DNA of 64,000 bases. Origin: Arthrobacter sp. SO5 (GTDB lineage: Bacteria > Actinomycetota > Actinomycetes > Actinomycetales > Micrococcaceae). Location: positions 1 through 64,000 of the forward strand of contig NZ_MQTQ01000003.1 of the NCBI RefSeq assembly GCF_020532805.1, written 5' to 3'. The stretch's first letter is position 1. Each line of letters opens with the position of its first letter. A program made the position numbers and the translations under genes. Of this stretch, positions 32,780-39,616 are shown one piece after another. The notes below the pieces were generated by a model. The model made no database searches. It was not told the origin of the DNA and worked only from the letters and a program-made list of their open reading frames with translations.

Positions 32780-35275
32780 CTAACGTGCCGGCGGGGCCGT
32801 GGCTGTTGGAACCGGCGACGCCGGGCCCTGAGCCGGTGCGGTGGCCGGCCCGGCGGATTCCGTGGGCTGCGGTTCCGAGCTCGCGGTGGATGTGGCAGCC
32901 GGAGCGGTTGCCGCGGGAGCGGTTGCCGGGGGAGCGGTCGCCGCGGGAGCCGTCCCGCCGGGCTGCGGCGCAGGGAAAGTCGCTCCGGGACTCGCTCCGG
33001 GAGTGGTGCCGGGGGCCGCAGTCTGGCTGGCTCCCGGCGAGCTCGGGGTCGTGGCAGGAGCCGTGCCGCCGGGAGTTCCCGGCGTCGCGCTGGGGTCGGC
33101 CTTGATGACCTCCACGATTTGCTCCTTGAAGGCGCTCAGCTTTCCCTGGATCTCCGAGAGCGGCACATTCTGCAGATTCCGTCCGTAGTCCGCGATCTGC
33201 TGCCAGAGGGCGTTCAGCCGGGCCATGCCATCGGTGCTCAGCGGGCCGTCCAGGGTGAGGACCAGCTGGCTCGCCAGTGCGTAGGTCAGGCACCGCAGGC
33301 AGTTGTAGTTGGCGGCCGCCGAGAGGTTTTCGGGGACGATCACGTCGGTCTGGCCCACGATCAGCACCACCTGGAAGCCGACCGCGACGGCGGCGCAGTC
33401 CGCGCAGCTGGCGAATGCGTAGGCCTCGTTGCGGGTGGTGACGTCCGTGCCGTCGTCGGCCCAGACCAGCGCGAAGGCGACGTCGTAGGTCACCGATCCG
33501 TCCGTGGTGTTGACGGCGAGTGACTGGTTGCCGTCCCCGTCGGGGCCGGCCGGCTGGTCGAAAGGGAACACCCAGGACGGTGCCGCCGTCGTCGTCTTGC
33601 CGTCCGGGCCGGACGCGCCGGACGCGCCGGACTGGCCGGATCCGCCGGACTGCCGCGGCACGAGAACCATGCTGAGCTGCGGTTCCTCCCGGGTGGGCTT
33701 CTTCGCGCCGGCTGGCCAGAGCGCGACGGTCCGGCCGGCCCGGCCTTCCCGCATGCCGGTGGTGGAACCTGCCGGGAAAATCGCTGTGGTCGCGTCGGCC
33801 AATGTGCCGCGCTCGTAGGGCTGGACGGGCCGGTAGCTCTCGGCGCCGGGCCACCAGGCCCAGGCCACGCCGGCCACGACGGCCGCGATTACGGCGAGGG
33901 CGGTTCCGCGGCGCAGGGCATTGCCGTGCGTTTTCTGCCACAGCCCGGTGGCGAGCTGCCGGCCCAGACGCAGCAGGATGTAGAAGATCCCCAGCACCGG
34001 CAGTGCCACGCAGGCGATCGCCAGGAGGCGAACGGAGGCGTCAAGGATATCCCCGCTTCCGAGGCTGCTGGAGAGCATGGCGTACTGTTTCTGGCTGCTA
34101 GCCCACGCCGTGCCCAGCAGGCGCGGCAGGGACAGGACCATCATGACCAGACTGAAGATGAGCAGTGGCACGGTGATCAGCACCCAGGCAGTCACGACGG
34201 CGCGGGCCCACGGTTTCAGGAGCTGCGCCGCGGGGTCCTTGGGACGCCACGGCAGGAGGCTGAGCAGGGTGGGCTTGATCCGCTGGAACAGGTCCGGGAC
34301 GCCGGTGGCGTCGGCAAGGATGTGGTAGCCGTCGAAGCGGACCAGCGGCATGAGCTGCCGCACCATCTGCAGGAGCTGCGTCACGACGACCAGCAGCAGT
34401 GCGTCGTATCCGGTGGCCCACCAGATGCCCATGATCCCGACGGCGACGATCGCGTTGAAGTACAGCCCGCCAAGGTCCGTCCGGATGCGGCCGGCGCGGC
34501 CCAGCCGGTAGGAATCGGTGACATCGGTGTAAAACGCGGGCCAGATGAGATACAGGCCGGTTCCCATGGCGCCCGGGGTGGCGCCGCCCCGGCGTGCCGC
34601 AGCGGCGTGGCCGAACTCGTGGAAGCCGGCGGAGAGCACGGTGACCGCGAGGATCAGCAGCACGAGTCCCGGGTTGGCGAAGGCCTCGTGGGTGGCCGAG
34701 GCAAGGCCCTTGACCATCAGGACCCACCAGCAGGTCGCGAGGAAGACGGCGGTCACGGCCACCACGATGAGCGGGTTGAAGAGCGCGGCGAACGGGGCCG
34801 TGATCCGGCGGGTGCGTTCCGGGTCCGTCACGGTGAAGCGGAACTTCATCCCGAGCAGGGGATCGGCCCTGCGCACCTCCGGCTGCGAGCCGTCGGCCAG
34901 TTGCAGCAGCCCCAGGGGAAGCAGCTGGGAGTCGATTAAAGTCTGTACGTTGCCGGCACTGACCAGCCTGCCGAATCCGGCGCTGGCGTGTTCAGCGATT
35001 TCCTCGAGGCCGCGGGCGCCGTCGATCGCGTCGAGGACGACGTAAAGCAGCCGCGTGAGTTGCAGGGTCTGGCCGTCGGCGCGCCGGACGAGGGACGGCG
35101 CCTCCCGGTAACCGGAGCCCTTGGTCTCGCCGATGAGCTGGATACCGTCTGCCCGGACCGGCACCCGGAGAGTGCCGGTCAGGGTGCCGGCCTGGGGCCC
35201 GACAGGCCGGGAATCCGGCGCGGAAGAGGCCGGCGGGCCGTCCGAGGGGGACGGCCCGCCGTTCGGAGTGCTCAT
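32780..35275 (-). CDS. M50-type membrane metalloprotease with PqqD-like domain
   Basis: It has 831 residues from ATG 35275 (MSTPNGGPSPSDG). Residues about 35-125 resemble a PqqD/RiPP-recognition fold (GQTLQLTRLLYVVLDAIDGARGLEEIAEHAS, then NVQTLIDSQLLPLGLL). A membrane domain carries HEFGHA at 219-224, the Zn-binding HExxH, and LVRFDGYHILAD, the third-ligand block of M50 'peptide zinc metalloprotease' (YydH-like) proteins, with about eight helices in all. The outer C-terminal domain has two CxxC pairs (Cys624/627 and Cys659/662), then a Pro/Ala/Thr-rich tail of about 110 residues. The gene starts 7 bp after the stop of the repeat-protein gene, its likely substrate. Frames extending upstream to 35419 have no support. 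Confidence 0.85.
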   Translation of the reverse strand: MSTPNGGPSPSDGPPASSAPDSRPVGPQAGTLTGTLRVPVRADGIQLIGETKGSGYREAPSLVRRADGQTLQLTRLLYVVLDAIDGARGLEEIAEHASAGFGRLVSAGNVQTLIDSQLLPLGLLQLADGSQPEVRRADPLLGMKFRFTVTDPERTRRITAPFAALFNPLIVVAVTAVFLATCWWVLMVKGLASATHEAFANPGLVLLILAVTVLSAGFHEFGHAAAARRGGATPGAMGTGLYLIWPAFYTDVTDSYRLGRAGRIRTDLGGLYFNAIVAVGIMGIWWATGYDALLLVVVTQLLQMVRQLMPLVRFDGYHILADATGVPDLFQRIKPTLLSLLPWRPKDPAAQLLKPWARAVVTAWVLITVPLLIFSLVMMVLSLPRLLGTAWASSQKQYAMLSSSLGSGDILDASVRLLAIACVALPVLGIFYILLRLGRQLATGLWQKTHGNALRRGTALAVIAAVVAGVAWAWWPGAESYRPVQPYERGTLADATTAIFPAGSTTGMREGRAGRTVALWPAGAKKPTREEPQLSMVLVPRQSGGSGQSGASGASGPDGKTTTAAPSWVFPFDQPAGPDGDGNQSLAVNTTDGSVTYDVAFALVWADDGTDVTTRNEAYAFASCADCAAVAVGFQVVLIVGQTDVIVPENLSAAANYNCLRCLTYALASQLVLTLDGPLSTDGMARLNALWQQIADYGRNLQNVPLSEIQGKLSAFKEQIVEVIKADPSATPGTPGGTAPATTPSSPGASQTAAPGTTPGASPGATFPAPQPGGTAPAATAPPATAPAATAPAATSTASSEPQPTESAGPATAPAQGPASPVPTATAPPAR

Positions 35276-35282
35276 CCGGGAG

Positions 35283-36029
35283 CTACTGCCGGAGATCGGA
35301 CTGCTGGGCGGCGTTGGCCGTTGCTTCGCCAGTGATGTTCTGGGTGATGATCGCGTCCTGCTGGGCCACCGCGAAGGCGTTGCTGTCGATCGAGCCGATG
35401 TTGGCGGCCACGGCAGCATCGATCGGGGCGGCGACGTTGGCGTTGGCGGCGACGGCCCCGTTGATGGGAGCCGCGATGCCGGCGTTGGCGTCCAGGTCCA
35501 CGTTCACGTTCAGCAAGTTGCCGTTGACGGCCCCCGCGGCTGCGGCGGCGTCGGTGGGCAGGGCGTCGGTGGGAAGGGCATCGCCGGGCAGGGCGCCGAC
35601 GTCGGGAACGGTGCCGCCGGGCAGCACGCCGCCGGCGTCGACGGATGTGCCGGCGTCGGCAGCGCCGGTGCCAGCCGCGCCGGCAGCCGTCGTCTCAGGG
35701 GCGGCGGCCTGGTCGATGGTGCTGTCCTGGGCGGATTCGGCGGTGGCGTCGGCCGTGATGCCCTGGTTGATGATGACGCCCTGGTCCGCGAGGGCCTGGG
35801 ATTCCGAGCCGAAGGACAGGATGTTTGCCGAGGCTGCGGCGTCGATCGGGGCTGCGACGTTGGCGTTGGCGGCGACGGCGAGGTCGATCGGTGCCGAGGC
35901 GCTGATGCCAAGATCCAGGTCCGCATTCAGGTCCAGCACGGAGGCTACTTCCTTGTCCGGAAGGGCGGTGCCTGCCTGCGCCATCAGTTCGTCCTCGCTC
36001 AGCGGGGTCAGTTCCTGTTCAGTGCTCAC
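35283..36029 (-). CDS. Leader-bearing duplicated repeat protein, probable protease substrate
   Basis: The 248-residue protein has no signal peptide. An acidic leader-like start (ELTPLSEDELMAQAGTALPDKEVASV, 6-31) is followed by an about 75-residue module (31-107), an Ala/Pro/Thr-rich linker (108-170), and a second copy of the module (172-248). Shared blocks are AVAANANVAAPIDAA, SANI or AANI, and a VIINQGITADATAESAQ / AIITQNITGEATANAAQ segment. It is nearly free of Cys, Trp and Arg, and very rich in Ala, Asp and Asn. The M50 protease gene follows in 7 bp. Similar proteins in databases may carry a misleading 'peptidoglycan-binding' label. I infer a secreted or surface peptide precursor. Confidence 0.8.
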   Translation of the reverse strand: MSTEQELTPLSEDELMAQAGTALPDKEVASVLDLNADLDLGISASAPIDLAVAANANVAAPIDAAASANILSFGSESQALADQGVIINQGITADATAESAQDSTIDQAAAPETTAAGAAGTGAADAGTSVDAGGVLPGGTVPDVGALPGDALPTDALPTDAAAAAGAVNGNLLNVNVDLDANAGIAAPINGAVAANANVAAPIDAAVAANIGSIDSNAFAVAQQDAIITQNITGEATANAAQQSDLRQ

Positions 36030-36424: not shown

Positions 36425-37510
36425 ATGAAGGCCGTGCGATTTTCGCCCTCGATCGAGATCGAGGCTGAACGGGAAGCCGACTTGACCCGGGAGATCCTCG
36501 CGCGGATGGCGGCCTCACAAGCGGCGAACTCCGACAAGCACCGCCACGCGATTCGCGATGCGCACGCGAAGAGCCACGCGATTCTGAAGGCAAACCTGAC
36601 GGTGCACGAGGAGTTGGCACCGGAACTCGCCCAGGGGATCTTCGCGAATCCCGGTTCGTTCCCGGCGGTGGTCCGCTTGTCGTCGTCGCCGGGCGACATC
36701 CACGCGGATCGGGTACCCGCACCGCGCGGGTTCGCGACGAAGGTGATCGGCGTGCCGGGCGAACGGCTGCTGCCGGCCCTGGGCGGCCACAACCAGGACT
36801 TCCTCATGGTCAATTTTCCGGTGCTGGCCTTCGGGACGATCGGCAAGTACCTGCAGATGCTGAGGCTGCTGGAGAAAAACGCCGCGGCCCCGGACTTCTT
36901 CCAGCGGATCGTGGCCGGAACCGCCCGCCTCGCCGAGGGAGCCGTGCAGGCGGTCGGGGCCACCCCGCACGCGACACTGCAGGGCATGGCCAGGGACAAC
37001 AACAACATGCTGGGAGAGACTTTTCACACCCAAGCGGCAGTGCGCTATGGCGAGTACATCGCGAAGCTGTCGTTTGCGCCGAAGTCCGCGAACGTCCGCG
37101 CGCTCACCGGCCGGCCGGTGAAGGTCCATGAGTTCTCGTCATTCCGTAACGCTGTGGTCGAGCACTTCCGCCAGGAGGGCGCCGACTATGAAGTGCGGGT
37201 TCAGTTGTGCACGGACCTGGAGGCCATGCCGGTGGAAGACGCGTCGGTGCCATGGGACGAGAACGCATCGCCGCAGCAAGTGGTTGCCACGCTGCGCATC
37301 GAACCGCAGGACGGCCACACTCCCGCGCGTCGCAACTACGGCGACGACATCCTGTCCTTCAATCCGTGGAACGGCGTGCAGGCACACCAACCGCTCGGGT
37401 CGATCATGCGGATCCGCAAACCGGCCTACGAACGCTCGAGCGCGTTCCGGCACCACCAGAACGCGCTCGGCCGGCTCGAGCCCGATTCCCTGGCACAAAT
37501 CCCTGATTGA
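36425..37510 (+). CDS. Catalase-family heme protein (SrpA/catalase-like)
   Basis: The 361-residue protein starts MKAVRFSPSIEIEAEREADLTREILARM. It is related to the catalase fold but shorter than true catalases (about 480 or more). VHEELAPELAQGIFANPGSFPAVVRLSSSPGDIHADRVPAPRGFATKVIGV corresponds to the catalase barrel start, with HADRVPAPRGFA in place of the usual R-D-x-RG-A-KF motif. NQDFLMVNFPVLAF corresponds to the NxPxFF-type block. The canonical distal His is not evident, so peroxidase or lipid-peroxide chemistry is possible rather than catalase activity. It is the first gene of a three-gene cassette ending with a DyP-type peroxidase. No clear ribosome site precedes ATG 36425. Confidence 0.75.
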   Translation: MKAVRFSPSIEIEAEREADLTREILARMAASQAANSDKHRHAIRDAHAKSHAILKANLTVHEELAPELAQGIFANPGSFPAVVRLSSSPGDIHADRVPAPRGFATKVIGVPGERLLPALGGHNQDFLMVNFPVLAFGTIGKYLQMLRLLEKNAAAPDFFQRIVAGTARLAEGAVQAVGATPHATLQGMARDNNNMLGETFHTQAAVRYGEYIAKLSFAPKSANVRALTGRPVKVHEFSSFRNAVVEHFRQEGADYEVRVQLCTDLEAMPVEDASVPWDENASPQQVVATLRIEPQDGHTPARRNYGDDILSFNPWNGVQAHQPLGSIMRIRKPAYERSSAFRHHQNALGRLEPDSLAQIPD

Positions 37511-37539
37511 ACCCGCCACTAAGACAAGGGAGCCCCATC

Positions 37540-38235
37540 ATGGCCGACCACGAAGATCCACGTCTGCAGGACGAGGGGAAGTTCGATGAGATCCGGCGCC
37601 GCGTCGCGGAAGTCGCGAAAGACGCGCCGCCGCTGGCCAGGATCGCGCTCGAAGCCATGGTCCGCAAGCACAATCCGGACCTGAAGGGCACCGCCGACTC
37701 TGCGGGCCGGGTGGGCATGCGATCGGGCAAGGTCTCGGAACTGACGGTCATCGTCGACCTGAAGCCCGGTGGCGCCCAGCGGCTTCAAAGGATCTTCGAT
37801 TTGACCAAGGGCAACATGGACGGCGCGCAGCGGGTCTCGACGCTGCACGACATGCGTTTCGTCTTCATCGACCACAACACCCGCATCCTGTTCGCGACCG
37901 CCTACGACGGGGACTGGGACAGCTACATCAGTGATTTCGCTACCAAGATCCCGGAACTTATGGACCTGCTGTTCCAGAACGTCGAGGGCTGGCCGGGCAT
38001 CTCCAGCCCGACCGTCAAGGATTTCATCGCCGAACACCAGATCAACGCCGCCGGCTGGTTCGTCGCCAACCCCCAGGTAACGGTGGTCGATGTCCGCCGG
38101 ATGCAGCGCACCGAACACGCCCTTGACACGTTCTTCGACGCTATGACCGGACGTGACGATCTCGACCCCAAGACCGCGGCAGCGATGAAGACGCTGACCG
38201 ACGCGATTTCGACACCGGAGGCGGTGGATTACTGA
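37540..38235 (+). CDS. Unknown protein between two heme enzymes
   Basis: The 231-residue protein starts at ATG 37540 behind AAGGGAG (MADHEDPRLQDEGKFDEIRRRV). I do not recognise a family with certainty. The block TLHDMRFVFIDHNTRILFATAYDGDWDSYISDF (about 101-133) resembles strands of a ferredoxin-like (chlorite dismutase/DyP-type) domain, and VVDVRRMQRTEHALDTFFDAMTG follows. No signal peptide or membrane helix is seen. It is 1 bp from the peroxidase gene and 29 bp from the catalase-like gene, so the three almost certainly act together. Confidence 0.75.
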   Translation: MADHEDPRLQDEGKFDEIRRRVAEVAKDAPPLARIALEAMVRKHNPDLKGTADSAGRVGMRSGKVSELTVIVDLKPGGAQRLQRIFDLTKGNMDGAQRVSTLHDMRFVFIDHNTRILFATAYDGDWDSYISDFATKIPELMDLLFQNVEGWPGISSPTVKDFIAEHQINAAGWFVANPQVTVVDVRRMQRTEHALDTFFDAMTGRDDLDPKTAAAMKTLTDAISTPEAVDY

Positions 38236-38236
38236 G

Positions 38237-39616
38237 ATGTCCGGACTGGCTAGATTTAAGGCACGATTCCGGCGCGAGCGCGTGCGCCTGGACCTGGGCG
38301 ACATCCAGGCGATGATCCTGCGGTCGCGGCCGGAGCCGTATGTCGGCGCCCACGCGATGGTGCACATCGATGACGCCGCGGGCGGCCGCGACCTGATCGC
38401 CAGGCTGGCAGAGCACATCCCGTCGGCCAGGGACTGGGCTGAGGACCGCAGCGCCTGGACCGGTGTGGCGATCAGCTACGACGGTCTGCAGGCGTTGGGT
38501 GTGCCCGGCGGATCCCTCGCCAGCTTCCCCTTGCCGTTTCAGCAGGGCATGGCCGCCCGCGCAGAGCAACTCCACGACTACGGCATCGACGCGCCCGAGA
38601 ACTGGGACAAGGCATTCAGCCCCGGCACCTGCCACATCGCACTGAGCATCTACGCGCAGGACCAGAATGCCCTGGACACGGCGCTGGACCTCGCAATGAG
38701 CGAACTGAAGCGCTCAGCCGGCGTGACGCTGATTGGGGTCCATCCGTTCGGGGCGGACGAGGACGCAAAGAACCCCTTCGGTTTCCGCGACTCGATCTCG
38801 CAGCCGACCGTTGCCGGCAGCGGAGTGGACGCGCAGCCGGGGCAGGAGCGGGCGATCGCCGCGGGCGAGTTCATCCTTGGCGAGAACAGCGAAACGGGTG
38901 TTCCGCTAGGCACTCCCCAACCGTCAGAGTTGGGCGACAACGGTTCCTATGTGGTGCTGCGTAAGTTCGTCAGCCGGGTCGGTGCTTTCAACGACTACCT
39001 CAGGTCTCAGGCCGATGACGCCGAAGGCCAGCATCAGCTCGGGGCCAAGATGTTCGGCCGCTGGCGCAGCGGCGCGCCGCTGGTGCTCTCGCCCGATCAC
39101 GACGACGAGGAGCTGGGCGCAGATCCGCAGCGGAACAACAACTTCGACTTCAAACAGGACCCGAAGGGGCTGATGTGTCCCCATGCGAGTCACATGCGCC
39201 GCCTCAACCCGCGGGACAGTCCGCTGACCATCTTGACCGATGTCAACATTCACCGGATCATCCGCAGATCCTCGACCTACGGCCCAAAGTGGACGCCGGA
39301 GGTGACCGCCGCCGATGATGCGCAAGAGGACCGCGGGCTGTATTTCATCTTCATCAGCGCACGCGCCTTCGACACGATCGAATTCATGCAGCAGGAGTGG
39401 ATCAACGGCGGCAATTTCGTCGACCTCGGGATCGAGTCGGACCCGATCGTCGGACTGCACGACGACACCAACAACTCCTTCACGATCCCCGCCGAACCCG
39501 CCCGCAGGAAGCTCAGAGGGGTGACCACCTTCAACCGGATGGCGGGCGGGGAGTACATGTTCATGCCGTCGCTGACCGCCCTTCGCTGGATCGGTGCGCA
39601 GGGCTGGGCCAAGTGA
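38237..39616 (+). CDS. DyP-type peroxidase family protein
   Basis: The 459-residue protein has the DyP active-site block NPFGFRDSISQPTVAG, equivalent to GXXDG with the last Gly replaced by Ser; the distal Asp is kept. CPHASHMRRLNPRDS gives the proximal heme His region, and IHRIIRRSSTYGP the distal Arg. No Tat signal is present at the N-terminus (MSGLARFKARFRRERVRLDLGDIQAMIL), so it is probably cytoplasmic or packaged in a partner. Members oxidise dyes or phenolics with H2O2, and the native substrate is usually unknown. It forms an operon with the two preceding genes. Confidence 0.88.
   Translation: MSGLARFKARFRRERVRLDLGDIQAMILRSRPEPYVGAHAMVHIDDAAGGRDLIARLAEHIPSARDWAEDRSAWTGVAISYDGLQALGVPGGSLASFPLPFQQGMAARAEQLHDYGIDAPENWDKAFSPGTCHIALSIYAQDQNALDTALDLAMSELKRSAGVTLIGVHPFGADEDAKNPFGFRDSISQPTVAGSGVDAQPGQERAIAAGEFILGENSETGVPLGTPQPSELGDNGSYVVLRKFVSRVGAFNDYLRSQADDAEGQHQLGAKMFGRWRSGAPLVLSPDHDDEELGADPQRNNNFDFKQDPKGLMCPHASHMRRLNPRDSPLTILTDVNIHRIIRRSSTYGPKWTPEVTAADDAQEDRGLYFIFISARAFDTIEFMQQEWINGGNFVDLGIESDPIVGLHDDTNNSFTIPAEPARRKLRGVTTFNRMAGGEYMFMPSLTALRWIGAQGWAK

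What the first reader, a model, noticed from the sequence alone, without database searches (positions are those of the whole stretch)
36425..39616. Three-gene redox cassette: catalase-like, unknown, DyP-type
Two different heme-enzyme families flank a 231-residue protein of unknown family, with 1 and 29 bp gaps. The catalase-like protein lacks the clear distal motif, and the DyP has Ser for the last Gly of GXXDG. The unknown protein has a stretch like a ferredoxin-like (chlorite dismutase/DyP) strand set. The cassette could use peroxide on an unknown substrate.
Basis: partly seen in the sequence, partly recalled or inferred. Interest (0 to 1): 0.5.

Follow-up and report, generated by a model that had tools for sequence, protein, structure and literature searches.

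The report
Peroxidase trio, possibly fatty-acid linked
Three adjacent bacterial genes (a catalase-like enzyme, an unstudied helper protein and a dye-decolorizing peroxidase) form a unit that has spread between distant bacteria, and some relatives of the unit sit beside fatty-acid-oxidising enzymes, which hints at what a peroxidase of unknown purpose may act on.

Summary
The cassette is real: three complete same-strand genes with 29- and 1-base gaps. All 94 distinct loci collected through the middle protein carry a DyP gene within 4 kb (41 clusters; one only as a remnant of a broken copy). A catalase-fold partner is detected in 66; other, partly overlapping partners are DUF4331 (8), P450 (6) and fatty-acid alpha-dioxygenase (5). 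Middle protein and DyP share one open frame on two plasmids. The three genes diverge together (Mantel r 0.88-0.95); of 61 sampled same-genus genomes only this one has the close form. Ser in GXXDS is a clade signature. The closest solved DyP is D. radiodurans DrDyP, inactive at physiological pH, substrate unknown; its gene lies in such a cassette. Best explanation: a peroxide-driven oxidation module for fatty-acid-derived substrates. The module is well supported; the substrate is inferred, and this genome lacks oleate hydratase and alpha-dioxygenase.

The parts
36425..37510 (+). catalase-fold heme protein (CAT), 361 aa; relatives are annotated 'catalase family protein' (a y4iL-like type, label recalled)
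   Evidence: annotation of a relative; R44, H47, R84, N123, R331, Y335, R342 invariant in 21 sequences; profile hits human catalase, E 8e-4; model matches catalases, coral allene oxide synthase and the M. avium catalase-related protein, Z about 20
37511..37539 (+). 29-base gap; AAGGGAG, a ribosome-binding-like stretch before the middle gene (seen by eye)
   Evidence: Sequence
37540..38235 (+). middle protein (MID), 231 aa; predicted alpha+beta-barrel core at about residues 62-179, conserved H103-x-x-R106 and Y122-D-G-x-W...Y129..D-F
   Evidence: no Pfam or NCBIfam family; no PDB relative by sequence
38237..39616 (+). DyP-type peroxidase, 459 aa, GXXDS variant; D185, H319 and R343 match catalytic D189, axial H324 and R348 of DrDyP
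   Evidence: (PDB 8re3 and 8re2, E 3.5e-158 and 4.6e-158)

Best explanation
The three genes are one horizontally mobile functional module. Its core is the MID-DyP pair: a conserved alpha+beta-barrel partner protein and a class V/C DyP, which I think work as one complex. In this version the third member is a catalase-fold heme protein with a complete heme pocket. Most likely mechanism: a peroxide (H2O2, or a fatty-acid hydroperoxide made elsewhere) is turned over at the CAT and DyP hemes to oxidise long-chain fatty acids or their hydroxy/keto/hydroperoxy derivatives. The result would be detoxification or a small bacterial oxylipin pathway. MID would hold the substrate, or switch the DyP heme from its resting low-spin state to an active one. 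Shown here: the module, its conservation, co-divergence, fusions and intact heme residues. Inferred: complex formation, the direction of chemistry, the lipid substrate and MID's task.
For: MID implies DyP: 94 of 94 distinct MID loci, 41 of 41 clusters at 85% identity (93 of 94 by the stricter earlier criterion). MID and DyP lie in one open frame in Sulfitobacter (P450-MID-DyP, 1620 aa) and R. leguminosarum (998 codons). Distances of CAT, MID and DyP correlate over 25 representatives (r 0.875, 0.946, 0.926; 0 of 5000 permutations each). Catalase-type gene + MID + DyP occurs in Actinomycetota, alpha-, beta- and gammaproteobacteria, Bacteroidota, Deinococcota and Bacillota. Lipid link, in separate architectures: oleate hydratase + hydroxyacyl-CoA dehydrogenase (HAD) + thioesterase + TetR divergent from CAT-MID-DyP in alphaproteobacteria; HAD in Deinococcus and Acinetobacter, HAD + oleate hydratase in Epilithonimonas, in other gene orders; by cluster HAD 5, oleate hydratase 3, enoyl-CoA hydratase 4 of 41; alpha-dioxygenase (E 6e-113 to solved alpha-dioxygenase) beside MID-DyP in 5 loci. 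CATs beside alpha-dioxygenases that lack MID-DyP (5 of 12 such loci) are 37-40% identical to the window's CAT, closer than the CATs of several other MID-DyP modules (29-33%).
Against: The window's own genome has neither oleate hydratase nor alpha-dioxygenase by these searches. I tested 21 whole genomes (G000 and 20 of the 49 behind): oleate hydratase passes its cut-off in 6, alpha-dioxygenase is found in 1, so neither is needed for the module to be kept. That sample was not random: of the 29 genomes left out, 17 have oleate hydratase in the locus. No fatty-acid gene was detected beside the cassette in the window or in L006-L009, its nearest relatives. The 19 oleate-hydratase loci of the large alphaproteobacterial cluster are one recent lineage and count once. 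A HAD homologue of this genome is unlinked, and 9 of the other 60 sampled same-genus genomes have one without the cassette. Heme-site residues vary between branches: N123 is Thr in D. radiodurans, Rhodococcus and Microvirga CATs as well as in the alpha-DOX-only ones, which also have Lys for R331, and L104, L105 and L129 have Asn for the distal His. 12 of 94 loci show MID-DyP with none of CAT, DUF4331, alpha-DOX or P450. No heme, peroxide or lipid activity was measured.
Confidence: 0.5

Rival explanations
1. General peroxide defence: CAT removes H2O2, DyP uses it on any reductant, MID is a stability or assembly factor; lipid genes are incidental neighbours.
For: CAT has the catalase heme residue set including distal His and RxxxY. 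In D. radiodurans, DR_A0145 and DR_A0146 rise after UVC/vacuum, and DR_A0146 is listed as a third catalase, less efficient than KatE1 (passages of PMC5731708 and PMC7143949; that DR_A0146 is the CAT next to DrDyP is my inference from the adjacent number). The window genome has no lipid partner gene of the two kinds searched.
Against: DrDyP is nearly inactive above pH 4 (PMC10820274 abstract and sections 2.1, 2.5). A third conserved gene without family, MID-DyP fusions and recurrent fatty-acid enzymes are not needed for plain peroxide removal.
Confidence: 0.25
2. Catabolism or detoxification of a non-lipid compound (aromatic or other xenobiotic): the heme enzymes oxidise an aromatic substrate, as tested for other DyPs.
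For: DyPs oxidise lignin-type units and other broad substrates in vitro (PMC10820274 introduction passages). Copies sit on plasmids that also carry metal or efflux genes nearby. The window seems to have phenylacetate-type genes near 44-47 kb (by eye, not tested).
Against: The recurrent neighbours across lineages are fatty-acid enzymes. The aromatic-type genes were not seen as part of the conserved unit.
Confidence: 0.15
3. CAT is an allene-oxide-synthase-like enzyme and the module makes specific oxylipin signals rather than detoxifying.
For: The CAT model matches coral AOS (Z 20.7 and 20.5) as well as true catalases. Related CATs pair with alpha-dioxygenase.
Against: The fold scores are tied and do not separate AOS from catalase. 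Position 46 before the distal His is Ala, not the cAOS Thr66. No alpha-dioxygenase was found in the window genome with the query used; lipoxygenase was not searched for.
Confidence: 0.1

Closest known systems
DrDyP (DR_A0145, PDB 8RE2 and its M190G mutant 8RE3; PMC10820274)
   Same: Closest solved relative (E 3.5e-158; PDB codes confirmed); same catalytic Asp, Arg and axial His positions. The D. radiodurans plasmid copy I fetched encodes it, after a MID gene and before a catalase-family gene.
   Different: Met instead of Ser at GXXDG position 5; gene order HAD-MID-DyP-CAT, not CAT-MID-DyP. The main text of the paper does not contain the words catalase, operon or fatty.
Catalase-fold oxylipin enzymes: coral allene oxide synthase / hydroperoxide lyase (PMC5617202 passages; PDB 1u5u, 3dy5)
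   Same: cAOS heme residues R64, H67, R102, N137, Y353 and R360 have counterparts R44, H47, R84, N123, Y335 and R342 (matched by me from motif and spacing); model Z 20.5-20.7.
   Different: Thr66 is replaced by Ala46; no lipoxygenase was seen; about 14% identity in the structural alignment.
Dimeric alpha+beta-barrel proteins (ABM, NIPSNAP, IsdG/MhuD, WhiE-ORFI)
   Same: MID core matches this fold group, Z about 5-7.6.
   Different: No sequence match; its own H-x-x-R and YDGxW motifs; extra helices at both ends.
Fatty-acid alpha-dioxygenase / P450 oxylipin pathways of plants and fungi (recalled)
   Same: Alpha-DOX or P450 genes sit beside MID-DyP in related loci.
   Different: Not present at the window locus, nor, for alpha-DOX, in its genome.

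Membership tests
DyP-type peroxidase (class V / former C-D) | Sequence match to DyP family models | tested here: met
   TIGR01413 112 bits (cut-off 100.5); Pfam DyP_N 30 (27.5), Dyp_perox_C 20.7 (20); class V DyPs in the PDB
DyP-type peroxidase (class V / former C-D) | Catalytic Asp, Arg of the peroxide pocket, proximal His | tested here: met
   D185, R343, H319 align with DrDyP D189, R348, H324; R343 and H319 invariant in 53 of 53 rows, D185 in 52 of 53
DyP-type peroxidase (class V / former C-D) | Full GXXDG motif | tested here: not met
   GFRDS; the alignment has S 39, G 11, N 2, M 1 of 53. DrDyP itself has Met there and is classed as a DyP; its M190G swap did not restore activity at pH 7.5 (abstract), so I treat position 5 as not decisive
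DyP-type peroxidase (class V / former C-D) | Heme binding and H2O2-dependent activity | not testable with these tools
   needs protein
Catalase superfamily | Catalase fold | tested here: met
   AlphaFold2 pLDDT 75.6, pTM 0.81; Foldseek E down to 1.3e-11, VIA Z about 20 to catalases
Catalase superfamily | Distal His and Asn, proximal RxxxY | tested here: met
   H47, N123, R331, Y335 invariant in 21 of 21; distal stretch aligned to human catalase. In the wider set N123 is Thr in some cassettes, e.g. D. radiodurans
Catalase superfamily | Pfam PF00199 match (true catalases) | tested here: not met
   no PF00199 hit at E up to 0.1, so I call it catalase-fold, not a true catalase
Catalase-related allene oxide synthase | Thr before the distal His (cAOS T66) | tested here: not met
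   Ala46, invariant in 21 (T66 from PMC5617202 passages)
Dimeric alpha+beta-barrel / CDE superfamily (for MID) | alpha+beta-barrel (ferredoxin-like) fold | tested here: inconclusive
   Recognisable rows are of this fold, but model pLDDT 63.9, Z at most 7.6 and no Foldseek hit at E 0.001 or better
Dimeric alpha+beta-barrel / CDE superfamily (for MID) | Heme binding | not testable with these tools
   H103 is kept in 36 of 39 rows but its role is unknown
Oleate-hydratase-linked cluster | Oleate hydratase in or near the cassette | tested here: not met
   Absent from the window genome; present in 3 of 41 clusters of relatives

The most novel reading that the evidence does not exclude
MID-DyP is the core of an undescribed bacterial oxylipin-type system. 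MID is the missing activator or substrate-presenting subunit of class V DyPs such as DrDyP, and the natural oxidant or substrate is a fatty-acid hydroperoxide delivered or processed by a catalase-fold, P450 or alpha-dioxygenase partner. This would explain why DrDyP alone is inactive with H2O2 at physiological pH.
Probability: 0.22. Interest if true: 0.78.

Novelty: new variant of a known kind. Interest (0 to 1): 0.57.

Why it matters
The physiological substrates of DyPs are an open question, stated as such in the DrDyP paper, whose authors speculate that interactions with other proteins (they name encapsulin) may govern its activity in vivo (section 2.5). A conserved partner gene, sometimes in one open frame with the DyP, gives a concrete candidate, and the recurrent fatty-acid enzymes give a concrete substrate class. 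Both can be tested with proteins from a harmless, tractable organism (D. radiodurans). It also gives a context to an unannotated protein family and to catalase-fold proteins that annotation calls 'catalase family protein'.

Tried and rejected
PDB search by sequence for MID (single sequence and profile): only chance-level hits. PDB search with CAT alone: nothing at E 0.001; the profile found catalases. Fold scores for CAT could not separate catalase from allene oxide synthase (tied). Chlorite dismutase and DyP are not among the 50 VIA rows listed for MID; this does not exclude them. An operator upstream of CAT: one weak inverted repeat (11-nt arms, 91%), not pursued. Whether the L056 P450 is a known fatty-acid P450: best PDB hits are macrolide hydroxylases, so no assignment. 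Genome-wide coupling with oleate hydratase or alpha-dioxygenase in cassette-bearing genomes: not found (6 and 1 of the 21 whole genomes tested, a chosen sample). Literature: one paper holds both 'oleate hydratase' and 'dyp' (listing only, not read); none holds both 'alpha-dioxygenase' and 'dyp-type peroxidase'; these searches cover only the held open library. Dropped before counts: L024, L028, L034, L045, L046 and L047 (broken or cut copies) and loci without CAT and DyP of sufficient length, and near-duplicates (54 loci to 25), repeat fetches of the same place, loci fetched by alpha-DOX (L130-L141) and two fetched by DyP (L142, L143). Of 45 plasmid records matching MID I opened 16. Of 18 alpha-DOX places without that MID I fetched 12.
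Full report
OBSERVATION. The window holds three complete ORFs on the + strand: CAT 36425-37510 (361 aa), MID 37540-38235 (231 aa) and DyP 38237-39616 (459 aa), with gaps of 29 and 1 bases. Upstream lie two - strand ORFs (32780-35419, 35283-36029); downstream is an oligopeptidase-B-like gene on the - strand. DyP passes the NCBIfam cut-off (112 against 100.5 bits) and just passes the Pfam ones. CAT and MID match no Pfam or NCBIfam family above cut-off.

CAT. A profile of 21 relatives finds human and other catalases in the PDB (best E 8e-4), and the alignment puts R-D-A-H47-A-K-S on the catalase R-x-x-H-A-K-G stretch. In the 21-sequence alignment R44, H47, R84, N123, R331, Y335 and R342 are invariant, including L048 at 30% identity. 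By spacing and motif (my reading) they match the heme residues R64, H67, R102, N137, Y353 and R360 of coral cAOS named in passages of PMC5617202; cAOS T66 corresponds to Ala46. In a wider set N123 is not kept everywhere: it is Thr in D. radiodurans (L055) and in L060, L096, L097 and L146. The AlphaFold2 model (pLDDT 75.6, pTM 0.81) matches catalases, coral allene oxide synthase and the M. avium 33-kDa catalase-related protein, tied near Z 20. It gets no PF00199 hit, so I call it catalase-fold.

MID. In 32 relatives T101, H103, R106, Y122-D-G, W126, Y129 and D132-F133 are invariant. In 49 representatives under 80% identity, H103 and R106 are each kept in 36 of 39 rows with letters there; two exceptions (L083, L085) show an HFAR stretch shifted in the alignment, the third (L061) seems genuine, by eye. 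The AlphaFold2 model is modest (mean pLDDT 63.9, other models 52.5-55.8). Foldseek finds nothing at E 0.001; the VIA-align rows that I recognise are alpha+beta-barrel proteins, best 9lmn_A Z 7.6, rmsd 4.4, 135 aligned. Z of this size is common, so the fold is likely, not proven.

DyP. The closest solved proteins are 8re3 and 8re2 (E 3.5e-158, 4.6e-158), which PMC10820274 names as DrDyP M190G and DrDyP (passage; abstract and sections 2.1, 2.5, data statement read). D185, H319 and R343 align with its D189, H324 and R348. At position 5 of GXXDG, 53 aligned DyPs have S 39, G 11, N 2 and M 1: Ser is a clade signature. DrDyP is low-spin at pH 7.5 and nearly inactive above pH 4; its physiological substrate is unknown, and changing Met190 to Gly did not help.

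SYNTENY. MID, or its alignment or a double-domain relative, was the query. Genome contigs gave 49 loci; 394 genomes of the class gave 24 genomes with 26 places, all looked at (one is the window); 99 relatives gave 5 genomes, two of them not among the 26 places; a double-domain MID gave one more; plasmids gave 45 records, of which I opened 16. Without repeats this is 94 loci in 41 clusters at 85% identity. DyP on the same strand within 4 kb: 94 of 94. By the earlier criterion L054, a broken copy, showed none, so strictly 93 of 94; L061 has its DyP beside the second of two MID copies. Catalase-fold partner: 66 loci, 20 clusters. DUF4331: 8 loci, 7 clusters. P450: 6 loci, 5 clusters. Alpha-dioxygenase: 5 loci, 5 clusters, three of them also with CAT (L104, L105, L129). 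None of these four: 12 loci. Paenibacillus (L051) and Rhizobium (L053) partners are PF00199 mini-catalases. MID and DyP share one polypeptide with a P450 in a Sulfitobacter plasmid protein (1620 aa) and one 998-codon open frame in R. leguminosarum.

CO-TRANSFER. Over 25 representatives (from 54 usable loci) distance matrices correlate at r 0.875 (CAT-MID), 0.946 (MID-DyP) and 0.926 (CAT-DyP), 0 of 5000 permutations each. This does not remove shared descent of the hosts, but the hosts span several phyla, and alphaproteobacterial copies are nearly identical across genera. Of 61 sampled genomes of the window's genus the close cassette is in one (G000); G046 and G053 have only the distant DUF4331 version. 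Cassette GC is 64.9% against 67.5% for the window. I read this as acquisition by transfer.

FATTY-ACID CONTEXT. Novosphingobium pSA3: oleate hydratase, 3-hydroxyacyl-CoA dehydrogenase (HAD), thioesterase and TetR, divergent from CAT-MID-DyP; the same on a Shinella plasmid. D. radiodurans: TetR, HAD, MID, DyP, catalase family protein (the DyP is DrDyP). Acinetobacter: MID, DyP, CAT, HAD. Epilithonimonas: MID, DyP, CAT, HAD, oleate hydratase. Aureimonas: oleate hydratase 43% and HAD 79% to the plasmid form. By cluster: HAD 5, oleate hydratase 3, enoyl-CoA hydratase 4 of 41; 19 of the 21 oleate-hydratase loci belong to one cluster. In another branch, with double-domain MIDs, an animal-haem-peroxidase gene sits beside MID-DyP; it matches solved fatty-acid alpha-dioxygenase at E 6e-113 and recurs at L104, L105, L107, L108 and L129. 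In the actinobacterial family of G469, 16 of 151 genomes have alpha-DOX and only 2 have that double-domain MID; in both the two lie within 3 kb. Reverse look: of 12 alpha-DOX loci fetched without MID-DyP (L130-L141, 12 of 18 such places), 5 have a catalase-fold gene adjacent. Those CATs form a clade (support 1.000), 37-40% identical to the window's CAT, closer than CATs of Acinetobacter, Epilithonimonas, Rhodococcus or Microvirga MID-DyP modules (29-33%), less close than that of D. radiodurans (47%). They have Thr at N123, as D. radiodurans does, and Lys at R331; L104, L105 and L129 have Asn for the distal His.

AGAINST. The window genome has no oleate hydratase and no alpha-dioxygenase by these searches. 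Of 21 whole genomes tested (G000 and 20 of the 49 behind), oleate hydratase passes the cut-off in 6 (in L026 and L048 it is in the cluster) and alpha-DOX occurs in 1; 6 plasmid records searched with them had neither. The sample left out 29 genomes, 17 of which have oleate hydratase in the locus. The HAD homologue of this genome (65%) lies on another contig beside a probable TetR and a large flavin monooxygenase-hydrolase fusion, and 9 of the other 60 sampled same-genus genomes have one without the cassette. So the lipid link rests on relatives and is an inference for the window.

MECHANISM. Shown: module, conservation, fusions, co-divergence, intact heme residues. Inferred: MID and DyP form a complex; MID presents a substrate or changes the DyP heme state; CAT handles a peroxide; the substrate is a fatty-acid derivative. 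Rivals are plain peroxide defence, non-lipid xenobiotic oxidation, and a dedicated oxylipin synthase; they are weighed in their sections.

NOVELTY. The enzyme families are known. I found no description of the three-gene module or of the MID-DyP pair within the searches made, mostly seen as listings and only in the held open library. The main text of the DrDyP paper does not contain the words catalase, operon or fatty. I rate it a new variant of a known kind, with a testable answer to an open question on DyP substrates.

Noticed in passing
window 32780-35419 (-) and 35283-36029 (-): An 879-aa protein matches the NCBIfam daptide HExxH metalloprotease below its cut-off (104.8 against 300 bits), next to a 248-aa Ala-rich repeat protein without a Pfam family: possibly a peptide-modification or export locus.
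   Followed up: no
G000 contig C4, L120 62-4056: HAD homologue, a probable TetR (by eye) and an 802-aa protein with an N-terminal flavin monooxygenase match and a C-terminal alpha/beta hydrolase match: looks like a long-chain hydroxy/keto-acid Baeyer-Villiger locus.
   Followed up: partly
L131, L132, L134, L135, L138: Fatty-acid alpha-dioxygenase genes directly beside catalase-fold genes without MID-DyP; these catalase-fold proteins have Lys where the window's CAT has R331.
   Followed up: partly
L104, L105, L129: Catalase-fold partners with Asn in place of the distal His, in loci that also carry alpha-dioxygenase.
   Followed up: no
L055 11059-12144: The D. radiodurans catalase-family protein beside DrDyP has Thr at the place of the conserved catalase Asn, like the catalase-fold partners of alpha-dioxygenases.
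   Followed up: no
L098-L100, L109, L110: A conserved variant MID, DUF4331, DyP, enoyl-CoA hydratase, Mo-binding oxidoreductase; DUF4331 could stand in for the catalase-fold partner, as no locus had both.
   Followed up: partly
L104-L108, L112, L125: Two MID domains in one protein, by eye joined by a hydrophobic stretch in the copies read (L104, L106).
   Followed up: no
L034, L045, L046, L054: Broken copies of cassette genes, suggesting that the module is sometimes lost; assembly errors are not excluded.
   Followed up: no
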